Source of the DNA: a virus
Strand: one strand, 5' to 3'
DNA length: 36,051 bases
IMG/VR virus record: IMGVR_UViG_3300008453_000575
Span: 1 to 36,051 of that record
In this document: one piece after another, positions 158 through 34,634 of the stretch
Position numbering within the stretch: position 1 is the stretch's first letter
How the letters are laid out: every line of letters starts with the position of its first letter
The notes under the pieces: generated by a model
What the model was told of the DNA's origin: nothing
Seen by the model: only the letters and a program-made list of their open reading frames with translations
Database searches by the model: none
Position numbers and translations under genes: made by a program

Positions 158-165
158 CTATTTCT

Positions 166-246
166 TATAACGGTTTCGGGCTTGGCGAAGTGGCTTTTAG
201 CGTTGGCTTGTGTGTCGGAAAGCCATTTTGCCAAACCCGTGTTATA
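166..246 (+). repeat. attC-like imperfect palindrome, site A
   Basis: TATAAC at 166-171 pairs with GTTATA at 241-246. Inside it, CGGGCTTGGC in the left arm pairs with GCCAAACCCG in the right arm, and TGGCTTT pairs with AAAGCCA. The left arm has extra unpaired bases, as integron attC sites do. It lies directly after one gene and before the next. Five similar sites occur in the window. Assignment as attC is inference; this could be another Bacteroidetes palindromic repeat. Confidence 0.65.
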
Positions 247-315
247 TGAAGTGCCGACTTATTTAGCACAAAAAATAAATTGAAAAACTAAACAGAAAAA
301 CAAAAGAAAAAAGCG

Positions 316-480
316 ATGGAAGATTTAAAAGAATTTATTTTAGTTTACGATAGTGGGTATAAAGAAATGACACGCCACTATAATATAAAAGAAGTTGAAA
401 AATGTTATTTAAATAAACAAGTTAGAAGTAATAGAGGTACACTTGAAATTTGCGTAAAAGTATTAGAAAATGGAAATTAA
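316..480 (+). CDS. Small hypothetical protein (54 aa)
   Basis: An ATG at 316 opens a 54-codon frame ending in TAA at 478-480. The protein is charged, with DSGYKEMTRHYNIKEVEKCY in its middle, and has no signal peptide or membrane segment. No family is recognised. Its last 11 bases overlap the start of the ABC-ATPase/GNAT gene in another frame, so the two are probably translationally coupled and share one cassette between palindromes A and B. The name is left open; the main support is the overlap and the intact frame in an otherwise gene-free 310-base gap. Confidence 0.55.
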   Translation: MEDLKEFILVYDSGYKEMTRHYNIKEVEKCYLNKQVRSNRGTLEICVKVLENGN

Positions 481-1618
481 ATTAAAAACAAAAATATTGA
501 ATGATAAATACACCGAGTATGTGTATGAAGCTTTTGATATTCAGAACAAAGAAGAAACATCTGTATCTATTCCTATGAATTTAGGGGAAGCTAAAAACTT
601 TGATTGGAATATCGGAGTTATTTTAGGAGGAAGTGGTAGTGGGAAAACTACTATCTTAAAAAAGATGGGCGATGTAAAAAAAGTAAACTTTGATGCAGAG
701 AAACCATTGATAAGTAACTTTGATTGGTTAGAACCAAAAGACGCTACATTAGTTTTAACTTCAATGGGATTAAGTTCTGTTCCTACTTGGTTAAGACCAT
801 TTCACACATTAAGTAATGGTGAACAATATCGAGCAACATTAGCTTACTTGGTTGCATCTGCAAAAGATGGTGAAGTAATTTTAGTTGATGAATATACTTC
901 GGTTGTAGATAGAGATGTAGCAAAGGCTATGAGTTTTGCTTTGCAAAAATACATTCGTAGAGAAAATAAAAGGATAATAGTTGCATCTTGCCATTACGAT
1001 ATATTAGAATGGTTGATGCCTAATTGGACTTGTTCACCACAAAAAGGAGGCGTACTCGAAAGAGGCGAATGGCTTCGGCAAGGCAGACCACAAATCACAT
1101 TACAAGTTAGTAGGGTTGAGGCTGAAACTTGGGACTTCTTCAAAAAACATCATTATTTAACAGAGGAACTGAATAAATCAGCACAATGTATTTTATTTGA
1201 ATGGAATGACAAACCTATTGGAATATGCTGTGTGCTTAATACACCGAGAAAAGGTATGGGAGAGGCAATGGCTATATCAAGGATTGTAATATTGCCAGAC
1301 TATCAAGGACTTGGGTTAGGTAGCAAATTATCATCTTTTATTGGTGGTGCTTACAAACTAAGAGGGAATAGGATGTTCATAAAAACAGCTAATCCTGCAC
1401 TTGGAGAGTATTTTAATAAGAACACAAAAGAATGGAGAGGAACTTCAAATAATGGTAAAGGTAAACCTGCATCTTCTTTTGACACCTTGAAGTATAAAAA
1501 TAGATTAACAAGGGTATCTTATTCACACGAATATATAGGAGAAAGTATAAATGGTTACGAAGATTTATTATTACCAATAAACGAAATGAGAAGTAAAAAT
1601 GAAATTACATTATTTTAA
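470..1618 (+). CDS. ABC-type ATPase fused to GNAT acetyltransferase domain
   Basis: This 382-residue soluble protein has an ABC-type ATPase in its first half. Walker A is G53-GSGSGK-T60, an LSNGEQ signature sits at 114-119, Walker B ends in D140-E141 and a switch histidine is H175. There are no membrane segments, so it is not a transporter subunit by itself. Residues about 215-330 look like a GNAT acetyltransferase, with the acetyl-CoA loop region QGLGLGS after a beta strand VILPDY. ABC-ATPase/GNAT fusions of this kind are known from phages and mobile elements, but their substrate is not established to my knowledge. The gene overlaps the small upstream gene by 11 bases and is followed by palindrome B. 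A role in nucleic-acid handling or defence is only inference. Confidence 0.8.
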   Translation: MEIKLKTKILNDKYTEYVYEAFDIQNKEETSVSIPMNLGEAKNFDWNIGVILGGSGSGKTTILKKMGDVKKVNFDAEKPLISNFDWLEPKDATLVLTSMGLSSVPTWLRPFHTLSNGEQYRATLAYLVASAKDGEVILVDEYTSVVDRDVAKAMSFALQKYIRRENKRIIVASCHYDILEWLMPNWTCSPQKGGVLERGEWLRQGRPQITLQVSRVEAETWDFFKKHHYLTEELNKSAQCILFEWNDKPIGICCVLNTPRKGMGEAMAISRIVILPDYQGLGLGSKLSSFIGGAYKLRGNRMFIKTANPALGEYFNKNTKEWRGTSNNGKGKPASSFDTLKYKNRLTRVSYSHEYIGESINGYEDLLLPINEMRSKNEITLF

Positions 1619-2888: not shown

Positions 2889-2934
2889 TTTTTTCAAACG
2901 AAATGTTGAAACGAAGAACGTCTGCCCTATTGCC

Positions 2935-3057
2935 TATAACGTTTTCGGGCTTGGCGAAGTTGCCGAACCGAAAGCTAAATTGAAAAACAAATGTTGAAAA
3001 TTATGGATAAAGTTGAATTAAAAGACGAAACGGCAATTTTGCCAAACCCGTGTTATG
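2935..3057 (+). repeat. attC-like imperfect palindrome, site C, overlapping the next gene
   Basis: TATAAC at 2935-2940 pairs with GTTATG at 3052-3057. Inner arms CGGGCTTGGC and GCCAAACCCG are nearly the same as in site A, and TTGCCG pairs with CGGCAA. The loop is longer than in the other sites and contains both possible ATG starts of the next methyltransferase, so the right arm is protein-coding. Confidence 0.65.
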
Positions 3058-3836
3058 TGCAGTGCTGTGATAATTTGGAACTCCTAAAATCACAGCCGAA
3101 TGAAAGTGTAAATATGATTTATTGCGATATACTTTATGGCACAGGTAGAAACTTTGGCGATTACCAAGATTTAAAGCCAATACGAAGCGAAATTGAAAGC
3201 CACTACTTACCAAGACTTATTGAAATGAAACGAGTGCTAAAACAAAACGGCTGTATTTATTTACAAATGGACACACGAATTAACCATTGGATGCGGATTT
3301 TAATGGATGATGTTTTTGGGTATGATAACTTCCGAAATGAAATTGTATGGTGCTATAATTCGCAAGGTAAAACAACAAAACATTGGAATAAAAAACACGA
3401 TGTAATATTATTTTACTCCAAAAGTGATACGTTTATTTTCAATTCGGATATTGTGAAAGACAGTATATCTGATTTAACATACAGAAGATTTAAGAAAGAA
3501 ATTGACACTTTTGGTTATTATACTGTTTTGAAAAATGGTAAGCGAACACAATATTCATTAGCCGATGGAAGTTTACCAAAAGATTGGTTTGAAGATGTTA
3601 CATACATTAGTAGAGATAACAAAGAATTGACAGGTTATCCTACCCAAAAACCAAAGGAACTAATAAGCCGTTTTGTTTTAGCTTCCACAAATGAAGGTGA
3701 TGTAGTGGCTGATTACTATTTGGGTAGTGGCACAACCGCCAAAGTTTGTCAGGAATTAAACCGAAATTTTATAGGCTGTGATTTGAACCCGAAAGCTATT
3801 GAAATAACGAAAGGTCGTTTGAATGGTGGTAGGTAG
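2991..3836 (+). CDS. DNA methyltransferase, beta class, second copy
   Basis: A 281-residue N6_N4-type DNA methyltransferase. Motif IV is CDILYGTG near residues 45-52 (DILY in place of DPPY), PTQKPKELI lies in the C-terminal half, and motif I is DYYLGSGTTAKVC. It is shorter than the first methyltransferase and only distantly similar to it, so the two are probably not a recent duplication. ATG codons at 2991 and 3003 are both possible starts, and both lie in the loop of palindrome C. Residues up to about 23 are therefore written in the palindrome's right arm (ETAILPNPCY). It has no restriction partner and is the last gene before the phage-like region. Likely role: host mimicry or protection of DNA. 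Confidence 0.8.
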   Translation: MLKIMDKVELKDETAILPNPCYVQCCDNLELLKSQPNESVNMIYCDILYGTGRNFGDYQDLKPIRSEIESHYLPRLIEMKRVLKQNGCIYLQMDTRINHWMRILMDDVFGYDNFRNEIVWCYNSQGKTTKHWNKKHDVILFYSKSDTFIFNSDIVKDSISDLTYRRFKKEIDTFGYYTVLKNGKRTQYSLADGSLPKDWFEDVTYISRDNKELTGYPTQKPKELISRFVLASTNEGDVVADYYLGSGTTAKVCQELNRNFIGCDLNPKAIEITKGRLNGGR

Positions 3837-3881: not shown

Positions 3882-4061
3882 ATGCAAATATACACGAAAA
3901 CAAAAGTAATCCGAGTTACACCTATACAACTAGCCACACTCCAAAAAATGAAGTCTTACAATGTCGATGTTGGGCATTTCATTAGAGAAGCCATAGCTGA
4001 GAAAATCAAAAGAGAGTACAAAGATTTAATACCTAAAGAAAAAAATAATTGTCCTTTTTGA
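3882..4061 (+). CDS. Small ribbon-helix-helix-like DNA-binding protein
   Basis: A 59-residue protein starting at ATG 3882. A short strand (TKVIRVTP, residues 6-13) is followed by two helices, the second reading VDVGHFIREAIAEKI. This is the usual form of Arc/MetJ-type ribbon-helix-helix proteins, which bind operators as dimers of dimers. Its stop codon lies inside the palindromic operator of the next promoter (4056-4084), so it could be an autoregulator or the regulator of the phage promoters; this is inference from position. It could also belong to the last cassette rather than the phage. The tail KEKNNCPF has no known role. Confidence 0.65.
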   Translation: MQIYTKTKVIRVTPIQLATLQKMKSYNVDVGHFIREAIAEKIKREYKDLIPKEKNNCPF

Positions 4062-4100
4062 ATAAAAGTATTGTTTAATCAAAATAAAGTATTATATTTG
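4056..4100 (+). promoter_or_regulatory. Early promoter P1 with palindromic operator
   Basis: The promoter is TTG at 4071-4073, exactly 19 bases, then TATATTTG at 4093-4100, a perfect match to the Bacteroidetes consensus. Over the -33 element lies a 29-bp imperfect palindrome: left arm TTTTGAATAAA (4056-4066), spacer AGTATTG, right arm TTTAATCAAAA (4074-4084), with 10 of 11 arm positions paired. The same palindrome occurs at three other promoters in the window. It should drive 4117-5539 and perhaps further. Confidence 0.8.
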
Positions 4101-4116
4101 TAAAAAAATTAATCAA

Positions 4117-6290: not shown

Positions 6291-6334
6291 TTTTGATTAA
6301 AAGTTTTTTTTATTCAAAAATAGCTTTATATTTG
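6291..6334 (+). promoter_or_regulatory. Promoter P2 with palindromic operator
   Basis: TATATTTG at 6327-6334 is the -7 box. The -33 position (6305-6307) is TTT, not TTG. The operator palindrome has left arm TTTTGATTAAA (6291-6301), spacer AGTTTTT and right arm TTTATTCAAAA (6309-6319), with 10 of 11 positions paired. Its distance to the -7 box is one base shorter than in P1, P4 and P5. Confidence 0.72.
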
Positions 6335-6369
6335 TACCAGCAATAAAGATAAAAGAAAAACAACAAACT

Positions 6370-7169: not shown

Positions 7170-7199
7170 TTGGTTATTTAAAAAAAAGTTTTATATTTG
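7170..7199 (+). promoter_or_regulatory. Replication promoter P3 (no palindromic operator)
   Basis: TTG at 7170-7172, exactly 19 bases, then TATATTTG at 7192-7199: a perfect Bacteroidetes promoter. Unlike P1, P2, P4 and P5 it lacks the TTTTGA...TCAAAA palindrome, so it is probably regulated in another way. Transcription should start near 7205, just before a structured leader. Confidence 0.82.
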
Positions 7200-7206
7200 T
7201 ACTTGT

Positions 7207-12243: not shown

Positions 12244-12376
12244 AGATTCTAGACCTCTTAGACTTTCAGCTATATTTAACGATAACGGCAAATGGAAGAT
12301 AAAAATTATATATCTTGATACCCTTGAATTTCAAGACATTACATACTCCGAAGAAACTATTTTAAAATTAATTTGA
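12224..12376 (+). CDS. Small hypothetical protein (50 aa)
   Basis: ATG at 12224 opens 50 codons ending in TGA at 12374-12376. The product looks beta-rich (LRLSAIFNDNGKWKIKIIYL) and ends in a short helix. It overlaps the nuclease gene by 20 bases and its stop lies within the left arm of the P4 operator. It closes the replication operon. No clear terminator lies between it and promoter P4, so read-through into the next operon is likely. No family recognised. Confidence 0.6.
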   Translation: MKTIISKDSRPLRLSAIFNDNGKWKIKIIYLDTLEFQDITYSEETILKLI

Positions 12377-12415
12377 AAAAAAGTATTGTTTAATCAAAAG
12401 TAGTTTGTATATTTG
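12371..12415 (+). promoter_or_regulatory. Middle/late promoter P4 with palindromic operator
   Basis: TTG at 12386-12388, 19 bases, then TATATTTG at 12408-12415. The operator has left arm ATTTGAAAAAA (12371-12381), spacer AGTATTG and right arm TTTAATCAAAA (12389-12399). Spacer and right arm are identical to P1. It is the only consensus promoter ahead of the gene block that runs to 34422. Confidence 0.78.
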
Positions 12416-12448
12416 TCAAACAAAAACAATCACAAAACATAAATAGAG

Positions 12449-13740: not shown

Positions 13741-14184
13741 ATGATAAAAAAGTTAGCTGTAAATCATAAGCAATGGATTAACTACGCTTTAAAAGTGTGT
13801 GGAAACCTTGACGACGCTAACGACCTTGTGCAGGATATGTATTTAAAAATGCACACTATCGATAAAGAAGTTAATAGCTCATACATTTATTGCGTAATCA
13901 AAAACATATACCTTGACCAGTACCGAAAGAATAAAGTAAGGGAAAAAACAATCTTTATTCAAGAAGAATTTGAAGAACAAAACGAGGATATAGATTTGAC
14001 TATTGCATACGATGAAGCACTAAATGAACTGAAAACCTATAAGCAACTTATAGTTAATTTCTCTACTAAAGACGGAGTTAATAACTTCGCTAAAGAAAGC
14101 GGAATATCTAGGGCAACGGTAATAAGAATTAGAAACGAATTTAAAGCGATACTATGGCAAAAAGTAAAGGGATTGGAGATGTAA
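13741..14184 (+). CDS. Sigma-70-like (ECF-type) transcription factor
   Basis: A 147-residue protein resembling small sigma factors. Residues about 10-65 match region 2: WINYALKVCGNLDDANDLVQ is the core-binding helix pair, and IYCVIKNIYLDQYRKNK resembles the -10 recognition helix. An acidic linker (EEFEEQNEDIDL) leads to a C-terminal helix-turn-helix (NNFAKESGISRATVIRIRN) in place of region 4. Placed just before the terminase genes, it may direct host RNA polymerase to late phage promoters, which would explain why no consensus promoter is seen upstream of the structural genes. No anti-sigma gene is evident. It overlaps the next gene by 31 bases. Confidence 0.72.
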   Translation: MIKKLAVNHKQWINYALKVCGNLDDANDLVQDMYLKMHTIDKEVNSSYIYCVIKNIYLDQYRKNKVREKTIFIQEEFEEQNEDIDLTIAYDEALNELKTYKQLIVNFSTKDGVNNFAKESGISRATVIRIRNEFKAILWQKVKGLEM

Positions 14185-14441
14185 TAGCTAATGTGACCAA
14201 AGCTATCGGTATTGAGCATTGTAAGGGTTGCGAGAAACGAAAGGATTTATTAAATAGATTGTTTCCTTTTAAGAATGTAAAGCAACCTACGGAATTACAA
14301 AAAGAATTAATTAAAAGCAATCCAACAGACGAACAACTTATTGAACTTTATAACGATATATTCAATAGTTCACTAGACAAAGAATCATTCACAATTAACA
14401 TTAAAACAAAAGTAATTAACGACTTAAACAAAACATTATGA
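14154..14441 (+). CDS. Conserved phage hypothetical with CxxC motif
   Basis: A 95-residue protein with a hydrophobic/Gly N-terminus (GIGDVIANVTKAIGIEHCKG) and the compact motif HCKGCEKRKDLLNRLFPF at about 22-39. Proteins with this CxxC-RK-LN-LFPF pattern are frequent near packaging genes of Bacteroidetes phages, but I know no tested role. The two cysteines with the nearby histidine may bind zinc. It overlaps the sigma-like gene by 31 bases and shares ATGA with the lipoprotein gene. Confidence 0.7.
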   Translation: MAKSKGIGDVIANVTKAIGIEHCKGCEKRKDLLNRLFPFKNVKQPTELQKELIKSNPTDEQLIELYNDIFNSSLDKESFTINIKTKVINDLNKTL

Positions 14442-14680
14442 GAGCAGAGATATTAGGATTATTAGCGGGAATATTATTAGTAGGGTGTAGTAAAGATGAT
14501 AACGCATCAGCACCAGAGCAAGATTGTAATTGCAATAGAGTAGTTGAGGTTGCTAGTTTCAATATGCCAGATAGAAGCGTGTTTGGAACGTACACTACCA
14601 AGAACGATTGTACAGGTAAAATATATCAAGGTAGTTGGACAGGAGCGAGTAACCAACCAAAAAAAGGTAGTTGTTATTAA
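14438..14680 (+). CDS. Small surface lipoprotein, possible superinfection exclusion
   Basis: An 80-residue precursor. Residues 1-16 form a short type II signal peptide with a hydrophobic core and lipobox L14-V-G-C17. The mature protein starts C17-S-K-D-D-N, fitting the lipoprotein export signal (Lys followed by two acidic residues) that sends flavobacterial lipoproteins to the outer face of the outer membrane. The mature part is about 64 residues with four more cysteines (CNC near 31-33, one at 58 and one at 79), so disulfides are possible. In T5 and lambdoid phages small lipoproteins block receptors or DNA entry; the same role is an inference here. The glutamate at position 4 is unusual in a signal peptide. 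Confidence 0.72.
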   Translation: MRAEILGLLAGILLVGCSKDDNASAPEQDCNCNRVVEVASFNMPDRSVFGTYTTKNDCTGKIYQGSWTGASNQPKKGSCY

Positions 14681-14703: not shown

Positions 14704-14973
14704 ATGGCATTAGGAGGAGCAAGAGAAGGGGCTGGTCGTAAGAGCAAAGCCGAAGAACAAAACTTAATAGAAAAGCTAAGTCCTTTAGAGGATTTGGCTT
14801 TTACTGCATTAACCTCAGCAATTAAAGACGGTAAAGATTGGGCAGTTAAAATGTATTTCGAGTATATGTATGGTAAGCCTAAACAACAAACAGACATAAC
14901 TTCTATGGGTGAAAAAATCCAAAATGTTATTAATTTAGGTACAGGAATTAATCCAAATGAAACTATTAGTTAA
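14704..14973 (+). CDS. terS: Terminase small subunit
   Basis: An 89-residue protein with the typical small-terminase opening, GGAREGAGRKSKAEE, then a helical region (EDLAFTALTSAIKDGKDWAVKMYFEYMYGKPKQ) ending in the YGKPxQ motif common in small subunits. It should recognise phage DNA and feed it to the large subunit encoded next, which it overlaps by 17 bases. It is short for the family (often 120-180 residues) and has no separate N-terminal HTH, so DNA recognition may depend on the basic start and on oligomer form. Confidence 0.78.
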   Translation: MALGGAREGAGRKSKAEEQNLIEKLSPLEDLAFTALTSAIKDGKDWAVKMYFEYMYGKPKQQTDITSMGEKIQNVINLGTGINPNETIS

Positions 14974-16252
14974 ACAAGAACACGCTACTTATTATCTAAA
15001 CGATAAAGACACTGAAGAAGTTTTATACGGTGGAGCAGCTGGAGGTGGTAAATCTGCTTTCGGCTGTTTGTGGCTTATATCAATGTGTCAAACATATCCA
15101 GGTACTCGTTGGTTAATGGGTAGGTCAAAACTAAAAACACTAAAAGAAACTACACTAAATTCATTCTTTGAACTTTCAGCTAAATTAGATATTAGTAATG
15201 AATTTAATTATAATGCACAATCAAATATTATTTACTTTCACAATGGTAGTGAGATAATTTTAAAGGATTTGTTTTTATATCCAAGCGACCCAAACTATGA
15301 TAGTTTAGGTTCGTTAGAAATTACAGGAGCATTTATTGATGAGTGTAATCAAGTTGTTTACAAAGCGTGGCAAATTGTAAAGTCAAGGATTCGATATAAA
15401 TTAACTGAGTTTGATTTGATGCCTAAAATGTTAGGTACTTTAAATCCAGCAAAGAATTGGACTTACAAAGAATTCTACCAACCATCAAAGAACGGAACTT
15501 TAAAACCTTACAGAAAGTTTATCCAAGCATTACCACAAGATAATCCACACTTACACCCTAGCTATTTAAAATCATTATTGCAATTAGATAATAATTCAAA
15601 GCAAAGATTATATTATGGGAATTGGGAATACGATGACGACCCTAGTACCTTAATTGATATGGATGCAATCTTAGATTATTTTAATCCAGTACATTTAACT
15701 AAAGAGAATAAATTTTATCTAACTATTGACGTTGCTAGAAAAGGAAAAGATACAACCGTTTTTAGAGTTTGGAATGGTTGGGTATGTATTGACGTGGTAA
15801 TATTTGCAAAGAATACAATAGTAGAAGCATTTGAAGAAGCGCGTAAACTACAATCTAAATATACAATTCCAAATAGTCAAACTATTGCCGATGAAGATGG
15901 AGTAGGTGGTGGACTTGTAGATATGTTAAGATGCTCAGGATTTGTAAATAATAGCAAAGCATTAAGGGGAGAGAATTACGAGAACCTAAAAAGTCAATGC
16001 AGTATTTTAATGGCTAAAAAAATACAAAGTAGAGAATGTGGTGAAGAAACTAAAAGCATTTCTATTCGTGATTTAGTAAGCGAAGAAATGGAACAAATAA
16101 AGCAAAAAGAAATAGATAAAGATACTAGACTAGGTATAATACCAAAAGATACTATTAAAGCAAATATAGGGCGTTCTCCTGACCATTGGGATAGTATTAT
16201 GATGAGGTATTATTTTGAGTTGAATAAAAAAGGAAATACCATTTTAGGATAA
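14957..16252 (+). CDS. terL: Terminase large subunit (packaging ATPase/nuclease)
   Basis: A 431-residue terminase. The ATPase has Walker A GGAAGGGKS at 25-33 and a Walker B ending D128-E129. The RNase H-like nuclease has acidic residues D258 (LTIDVARKGKDTT), D312 with E313 and D314 (IADEDGVGGG) and D412 in SPDHWDSIMM. All parts needed to pump and cut DNA are present, and the length is normal. It acts at the portal vertex, with the small subunit encoded upstream. The portal gene lies 11 kb downstream, not next door, which is unusual. The start at 14957 overlaps terS by 17 bases. Confidence 0.92.
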   Translation: MKLLVKQEHATYYLNDKDTEEVLYGGAAGGGKSAFGCLWLISMCQTYPGTRWLMGRSKLKTLKETTLNSFFELSAKLDISNEFNYNAQSNIIYFHNGSEIILKDLFLYPSDPNYDSLGSLEITGAFIDECNQVVYKAWQIVKSRIRYKLTEFDLMPKMLGTLNPAKNWTYKEFYQPSKNGTLKPYRKFIQALPQDNPHLHPSYLKSLLQLDNNSKQRLYYGNWEYDDDPSTLIDMDAILDYFNPVHLTKENKFYLTIDVARKGKDTTVFRVWNGWVCIDVVIFAKNTIVEAFEEARKLQSKYTIPNSQTIADEDGVGGGLVDMLRCSGFVNNSKALRGENYENLKSQCSILMAKKIQSRECGEETKSISIRDLVSEEMEQIKQKEIDKDTRLGIIPKDTIKANIGRSPDHWDSIMMRYYFELNKKGNTILG

Positions 16253-34557: not shown

Positions 34558-34602
34558 TTTTGAAAAAAAGTTTTTTTAATTCAAAAGATAGTTTTATATT
34601 TG
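34558..34602 (+). promoter_or_regulatory. Promoter P5 with palindromic operator
   Basis: TATATTTG at 34595-34602. At -33 (34573-34575) the bases are TTT, as in P2. The operator has left arm TTTTGAAAAAA (34558-34568), spacer AGTTTTT and right arm TTAATTCAAAA (34576-34586). Spacing to the -7 box equals P1 and P4. It drives the two small genes at the right end. Confidence 0.72.
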
Positions 34603-34634
34603 TACCCAGATAACAATTAAAAAAGAGAGAAAAT

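What the first reader, a model, noticed from the sequence alone, without database searches (positions are those of the whole stretch)
14438..14680. Phage lipoprotein with a flavobacterial surface-export signal
The lipobox Cys is followed by S-K-D-D-N, matching the export signal that places lipoproteins on the cell surface in Flavobacteriia. A surface lipoprotein made next to the terminase genes is likely to act on receptors and block superinfection, as T5 Llp does, but with a Bacteroidetes-specific route. I know of no described example of an export-signal phage lipoprotein.
Basis: partly seen in the sequence, partly recalled or inferred. Interest (0 to 1): 0.6.

Follow-up and report, generated by a model that had tools for sequence, protein, structure and literature searches.

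The report
Flavobacterial phage lipoprotein with surface-export signal
A phage that probably infects flavobacteria carries a small cysteine-rich lipoprotein whose start matches the host's tag for sending lipoproteins to the cell surface; it is one of 45 related phage proteins found here, and it probably changes the infected cell's outer membrane, perhaps to keep other phages out, although no function has been tested.

Summary
The 80-residue ORF at 14438-14680 is a lipoprotein (lipobox LVGC) followed by SKDDN, an exact fit to the Capnocytophaga export signal C-X-K-(D/E)2-X, a signal of this type also shown to work in Flavobacterium johnsoniae. I assembled 45 distinct relatives from viral contigs. 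All keep the lipobox and four further cysteines, and residues 30-80 are predicted to fold confidently as a small beta domain. The strict KDD-type signal is not a family trait (11 of 45, 4 of 15 groups), but an acidic start is (36 of 45 net negative). Several of the same phages also encode a spanin-like lipoprotein that starts C[GA]SRKV, net positive, which argues that the acidic start sorts this protein differently and that it is not the spanin. Among near-identical sister phages the signal region is conserved while the exposed body has been exchanged, as has the terminase module. Superinfection exclusion is the best mechanistic guess, but unproven. The T5 Llp analogy needs correcting: Llp works from the periplasmic face, and no sequence relationship to Llp was found. 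Unrelated phage lipoproteins with KDD starts also exist. Verdict: a real, uncharacterised phage lipoprotein family; surface location likely; function open.

The parts
14438..14680 (+). lipoprotein gene, 80 aa (64 aa mature, counted from the lipidated Cys17)
   Evidence: 45 distinct relatives
14438..14485 (+). signal peptide, residues 1-16, MRAEILGLLAGILLVG
   Evidence: sequence; (hydrophobic core, only convincing lipobox ORF in the window)
14477..14488 (+). lipobox L-V-G-C; Cys17 is the predicted lipidated +1 residue
   Evidence: Cys invariant in 45/45 members
14489..14503 (+). export-signal match S-K-D-D-N at +2 to +6
   Evidence: rule C-X-K-(D/E)2-X in PMC5080379; conserved across synonymous changes in close relatives
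14525..14677 (+). exposed body, residues 30-80: three-stranded beta domain with C30, C32, C58, C79
   Evidence: AlphaFold2 pLDDT 92-96 over residues 31-80; cysteines invariant
14438..14441 (+). ATGA overlap with the stop of gene 14154-14441 (translational coupling likely)
13741..14184 (+). sigma-70 region 2 protein, first gene of the recurring order sigma / 14154 / lipoprotein / terS / terL
   Evidence: PF04542 34.7 bits, cutoff 24; order in distant relatives
14154..14441 (+). conserved upstream neighbour, unknown function
   Evidence: phrog_32048 E 6e-11
14704..14973 (+). terminase small subunit candidate (by position and synteny)
14957..16252 (+). terminase large subunit
   Evidence: PF04466 E 2e-12; PHROG 2
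12386..12424 (+). Bacteroidota-type promoter-like repeat (TTG...TATATTTG), nearest repeat copy upstream of the gene; inferred

Best explanation
The gene encodes a small phage lipoprotein made late or in mid infection with the packaging genes. The signal peptide and lipobox send it through lipidation to the outer membrane; the acidic SKDDN start then directs it to the outer face by the host's surface-lipoprotein pathway. There the disulfide-stabilised beta domain binds an outer-membrane partner, most likely a phage receptor such as a TonB-dependent transporter or its partner surface lipoprotein, and lowers adsorption of further phages and of progeny to debris. Shown: gene, lipobox, signal match, family, conserved cysteines, confident predicted domain, body exchange, and that it is not the spanin in phages that carry both. 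Inferred: surface location, disulfides, timing, partner and exclusion effect.
For: Exact match to the minimal export signal, which works in F. johnsoniae. Lipobox in 45/45 relatives and five invariant cysteines. D/E fraction 31% at +2 to +7 against 9% in the body; 36/45 net negative. Spanin-like lipoproteins of the same phages are C[GA]SRKV, net positive in all. Signal region conserved while the body is exchanged between sister phages (residues 33-80 dS mostly above 1, neighbours 0.2-0.4) yet under purifying selection (dN/dS about 0.1-0.3): what a binding domain under diversification would show. Accessory: found upstream of terL in 15 of 77 terL loci, of which five come from the window's own type, and at other places in other phages. 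No relative found in about 85,000 prokaryote genomes by the narrow pattern scans, fitting a lytic-phase role. Small lipoproteins are the known means of exclusion at outer-membrane receptors.
Against: No experiment; no receptor or partner known. Strict signal in only 4 of 15 groups, and three members (C[KN]KQSVQ) have no acid at all. An acidic start is common in Bacteroidota lipoproteins (16/29 with two or more acids in the rough control). The two exclusion lipoproteins with solved complexes that I read about act from the periplasm. No sequence relation to Llp: only the signal peptide aligns and the mature part scores within shuffles (98/2000). Body exchange coincides in part with terminase-module exchange and could be ordinary mosaicism.
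Confidence: 0.38

Rival explanations
1. Periplasm-facing exclusion lipoprotein: it stays on the inner leaflet of the outer membrane and jams a receptor from below, like T5 Llp or Rtp45. The acidic start is not a functional export signal in most members.
For: Both structurally characterised cases act from the periplasmic face. Strict signal is not conserved. Acidic starts are frequent anyway.
Against: The window's own clade keeps CSKDDNA through synonymous change and the motif suffices for export of a reporter. Contrast with C[GA]SRKV lipoproteins of the same phages.
Confidence: 0.2
2. Surface or outer-membrane lipoprotein with another role in infected cells: modifies envelope, vesicles, nutrient uptake or conjugation entry, without blocking phages.
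For: No functional evidence points specifically to exclusion; unrelated KDD-type lipoproteins occur in other phage contigs, so phages may use this route for several purposes.
Against: Small size, accessory distribution and body exchange fit an exclusion or specificity factor better.
Confidence: 0.25
3. Outer-membrane spanin subunit of the lysis system.
For: Small phage lipoprotein; weak PHROG matches to Rz-like spanins in a few members. No other lipoprotein found in the window.
Against: Phages such as those of L300, L119, L122 and L306/L307 carry both a family member and a separate lipoprotein with a C-terminal membrane helix; in phage 11b that type follows the endolysin. Here the gene is 19 kb from holin and endolysin, with no membrane helix in the body.
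Confidence: 0.06
4. A lipoprotein picked up from a host, carried as a passenger without benefit to the phage.
For: Looks like a typical Bacteroidota lipoprotein N-terminus.
Against: 45 distinct phage relatives, purifying selection, none found in the genome scans.
Confidence: 0.04

Closest known systems
Bacteroidota surface lipoproteins with a lipoprotein export signal (LES; Lauber 2016, PMC5080379)
   Same: SPII lipobox then C-X-K-(D/E)2-X at the optimal position
   Different: Phage-encoded, 64-residue mature protein, not part of a transporter system; surface location untested
T5 Llp (lytic conversion lipoprotein, PDB 8a60; PMC9586334)
   Same: Small phage lipoprotein of about 80 aa; Llp has one disulfide; second-ranked PDB sequence for the family profile but at E 0.45
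   Different: Only the signal peptide aligns, mature part not above shuffles; Llp start CSTFGPK has no export signal and the protein is periplasmic
Cor / Rtp45 exclusion lipoproteins (PHROG 1119; PMC12685063)
   Same: Small cysteine-containing phage lipoproteins; 5 of 45 members match PHROG 1119 weakly (best E 0.0047)
   Different: Rtp45 acts from the periplasm on an enterobacterial receptor; the PHROG match is weak, starts at the signal peptide and misses the window protein
Unimolecular spanins of flavobacterial phages (PMC8776804; phage 11b gp49)
   Same: Phage outer-membrane lipoprotein
   Different: Have a C-terminal membrane helix and a C[GA]SRKV start; separate gene in the same phages
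PHROG 8801 and PHROG 902 (unknown function)
   Same: Weak matches over more than the signal peptide; 16 and 10 of 45 members at E up to 0.1, best 6.5e-4 and 1e-4
   Different: Below any safe cut-off for the window protein (E 0.022 both); no function known
BFVD A0A6J7X3E3, 'Lipoprotein', uncultured Caudovirales phage
   Same: Foldseek E 1.7e-4, 37% identity, 77 aa: very likely a member already in UniProt, named only lipoprotein
   Different: Uncharacterised

Membership tests
LES surface lipoproteins of Bacteroidota | SPII signal peptide with lipobox | tested here: met
   LVGC, invariant Cys in 45/45
LES surface lipoproteins of Bacteroidota | C-X-K-(D/E)2-X directly after the lipidated Cys (window protein) | tested here: met
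   CSKDDN against the rule in PMC5080379
LES surface lipoproteins of Bacteroidota | strict signal conserved across the family | tested here: not met
   11 of 45 members, 4 of 15 groups; acidic net charge in 36 of 45
LES surface lipoproteins of Bacteroidota | exposure on intact cells | not testable with these tools
   needs labelling or protease shaving
T5 Llp / Cor exclusion lipoproteins | sequence homology of the mature domain | tested here: not met
   hhalign aligns residues 1-22 only; mature profile scores Llp 1.6 bits, 98/2000 shuffles as good
T5 Llp / Cor exclusion lipoproteins | periplasmic location at the receptor | not testable with these tools
   sequence suggests the opposite face
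T5 Llp / Cor exclusion lipoproteins | blocks adsorption of related phages | not testable with these tools
   no experiment
Phage spanins (o-spanin or u-spanin) | gene in the lysis cassette | tested here: not met
   holin 33362 and endolysin 33783 are 19 kb away
Phage spanins (o-spanin or u-spanin) | C-terminal membrane helix (u-spanin) | tested here: not met
   no hydrophobic segment in the body; beta domain
Phage spanins (o-spanin or u-spanin) | is the only spanin candidate of its phage | tested here: not met
   separate spanin-like lipoprotein with C-terminal helix in several phages that carry a family member; in the window itself no other lipoprotein was found

The most novel reading that the evidence does not exclude
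A family of phage exclusion factors that act from outside the cell: the phage borrows the Bacteroidota surface-lipoprotein pathway to display a swappable disulfide-bonded domain that masks receptors on the outer face, unlike the periplasmic Llp/Rtp45 type.
Probability: 0.25. Interest if true: 0.65.

Novelty: new variant of a known kind. Interest (0 to 1): 0.4.

Why it matters
If true, phages of an abundant phylum use the host's surface-lipoprotein pathway, whose flippase is still unknown (PMC12578637), to remodel the surface of infected cells. That would give a second, outside-facing mechanism of lipoprotein superinfection exclusion. The natural contrast within one phage, acidic start on this protein and SRKV start on the spanin-like lipoprotein, is a ready-made test of how lipoproteins are sorted to the two faces of the outer membrane.

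Tried and rejected
Pfam and NCBIfam gave no family for the window protein. Known phages and plasmids hold no tblastn relative of the three members tried (window and L073 types in phages; L143 type in both collections). Two genome-contig scans confirmed no relative, though the peptide patterns were narrow. A search by profile in Flavobacteriaceae genomes was not possible because no genome handle could be obtained. PDB fold searches gave only weak small-barrel matches (best Foldseek E 0.15, best Z 5.0), which I do not interpret. L085 and L093 were drawn in by profile drift and dropped (no lipobox); L159 is a fragment. The PDB rank-2 hit to T5 Llp was tested and rejected as homology. Spanin was considered and rejected. 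An earlier wish to read the body divergence as positive selection was dropped: dN/dS is low and the high dS points to exchange of a diverged allele.

Full report
What is there. The window is an IMG/VR virus record of 36,051 bases, 32% G+C, with terminase, portal, holin and endolysin genes. The ORF at 14438-14680 encodes 80 residues: MRAEILGLLAGILLVG^CSKDDNASAPEQDCNCNRVVEVASFNMPDRSVFGTYTTKNDCTGKIYQGSWTGASNQPKKGSCY. It is the only convincing lipoprotein in the window. Its start codon overlaps the stop of the upstream gene, and the nearest upstream copy of the phage's repeated Bacteroidota-type promoter sequence is at about 12386-12424, so it is probably co-transcribed with the terminase genes. 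That is inference.

The signal. Lauber et al. defined the C. canimorsus export signal as K-(D/E)2 or Q-A-(D/E)2, with C-X-K-(D/E)2-X as the optimal form, sufficient to expose a periplasmic reporter (PMC5080379). CSKDDN fits exactly. The F. johnsoniae consensus inferred there was different (SDDFE), but the C. canimorsus signal on the same reporter is exposed in F. johnsoniae too (PMC11885536). In the close relatives the motif is unchanged although its codons differ synonymously.

The family. Viral-contig searches and iterated profiles gave 45 distinct full-length members after removing two drifted hits and a fragment. All have a lipobox; C17, C30, C32, C58 and C79 are invariant. The body has the form DCxCxRVVEV...TINDCTG.Q....KxGxCK. 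AlphaFold2 predicts residues 31-80 at pLDDT above 90 with three strands. No Pfam or NCBIfam family covers it; PHROG 8801 and 902 may be distant relatives. One BFVD entry, named only lipoprotein, is very likely a member.

Is the signal a family trait? The strict form is in 11 of 45 members and 4 of 15 groups at 60% identity. Others begin with CTATDID, CTLSKED, CTPEENL, CSSEEEN and similar; 36 of 45 are net negative over +2 to +7, with 31% acidic residues there against 9% in the body. Members C[KN]KQSVQ have none. A rough background from other Bacteroidota plasmids had 0/29 strict and 16/29 with two or more acids, so an acidic start alone says little.

An internal control. Four loci or records in this set (G001 with L300, L119, L122, and G004 with L306/L307) encode both a family member and a second lipoprotein with a C-terminal membrane helix; L120 and L121 carry the same second type by its start, although the helix fell below my threshold there. 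In Flavobacterium phage 11b the same type directly follows the GH19 endolysin, as expected of the unimolecular spanins reported in flavobacterial phages (PMC8776804). These proteins begin C[GA]SRKV and are net positive. Their job requires facing the periplasm. The opposite charge on the two lipoproteins of one phage is the best sequence evidence that the acidic start has a sorting role, and it makes the spanin explanation unlikely.

Position and exchange. The order sigma-like gene, gene 14154, lipoprotein, terS, terL recurs in relatives whose sigma-like gene is only 24-41% identical, but members also stand before DNA-methyltransferase or recombination genes (L106, L107, L113, L116). Of 77 terL loci with enough upstream sequence, 15 have the gene; five of these are the window type itself and some others are repeat fetches. 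Sister phages L003, L004, L005 and L007 share the flanks at roughly 88-96% DNA identity but carry a different terminase between window 14707 and 16228. In L004, L005 and L007 residues 1-32 of the lipoprotein are nearly the same as in the window while residues 33-80 have dN about 0.3 and dS above 1, against dS 0.2-0.4 for neighbours. So the body has been exchanged behind a constant signal region. dN/dS is low, so the body is functional.

How it may work. Small phage lipoproteins that prevent re-infection are well established: Llp of T5 binds FhuA (PMC9586334) and Rtp45 binds LptD (PMC12685063). Both act from the periplasmic side. If the present protein is displayed outside, it would block a receptor directly or through a partner, which is a different mechanism from Llp. 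I put surface location at about 0.6 and an exclusion role, from either face, at about 0.55-0.6.

Relation to Llp. The family profile ranks Llp second among PDB sequences at E 0.45, with cysteines that partly line up, but profile comparison aligns the signal peptide only and the mature part is matched or beaten by about 5% of shuffled sequences. It is not filed as an Llp or Cor member.

Not unique. A sample scan for GC-(S/T)-K-D-D found nine true lipoproteins in 80 contigs, including an unrelated family of about 125 aa in L191, L194, L227 and L235. Other lipoproteins in related phage records begin CSSDDSN, CSNDDSQ and CSKDELT. No paper in the library joins the terms lipoprotein export signal and phage in a relevant way. 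The literature search was limited to open-access text.

Noticed in passing
window 14707-16228; L003, L004, L005, L007: Terminase module exchange: near-identical sister phages carry an unrelated small and large terminase at the same place, with HNH-type ORFs inserted in L003 and L007.
   Followed up: partly
L300:4375, L307:13060, L119, L122, L120, L121, L297:1630: Spanin-like lipoproteins with an almost invariant C[GA]SRKV start, a possible periplasm-retention counterpart to the acidic export signal.
   Followed up: partly
L191:4511, L194:7862, L227, L235:434: Second, unrelated family of phage-contig lipoproteins (about 125 aa) with C[ST]KDD starts and a body resembling NSVGIKLQT...IKIFDI...KVYTSALPSSAYRI.
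   Followed up: no
window 4057-4108, 6311-6337, 7176-7202, 12372-12423, 34559-34610: Repeated promoter-like sequence TTTGAAAAAAAGT...TATATTTG ahead of gene clusters, Bacteroidota type.
   Followed up: partly
window 13741-14184: Phage sigma-70 region 2 protein just before the packaging genes; may be a late transcription factor.
   Followed up: no
window 158-254 and 2927-3065: Two short stretches about 90% alike, the second just before a methyltransferase gene, like the remnant of a duplication.
   Followed up: no
L026:895-1122: A different small lipoprotein (CTKKYTCKTTTT...) occupies the position just before terS in a related phage.
   Followed up: no
window 470-1618: Protein with ABC-ATPase-like and acetyltransferase-like parts, strong match to PHROG 11143 of unknown function.
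   Followed up: no
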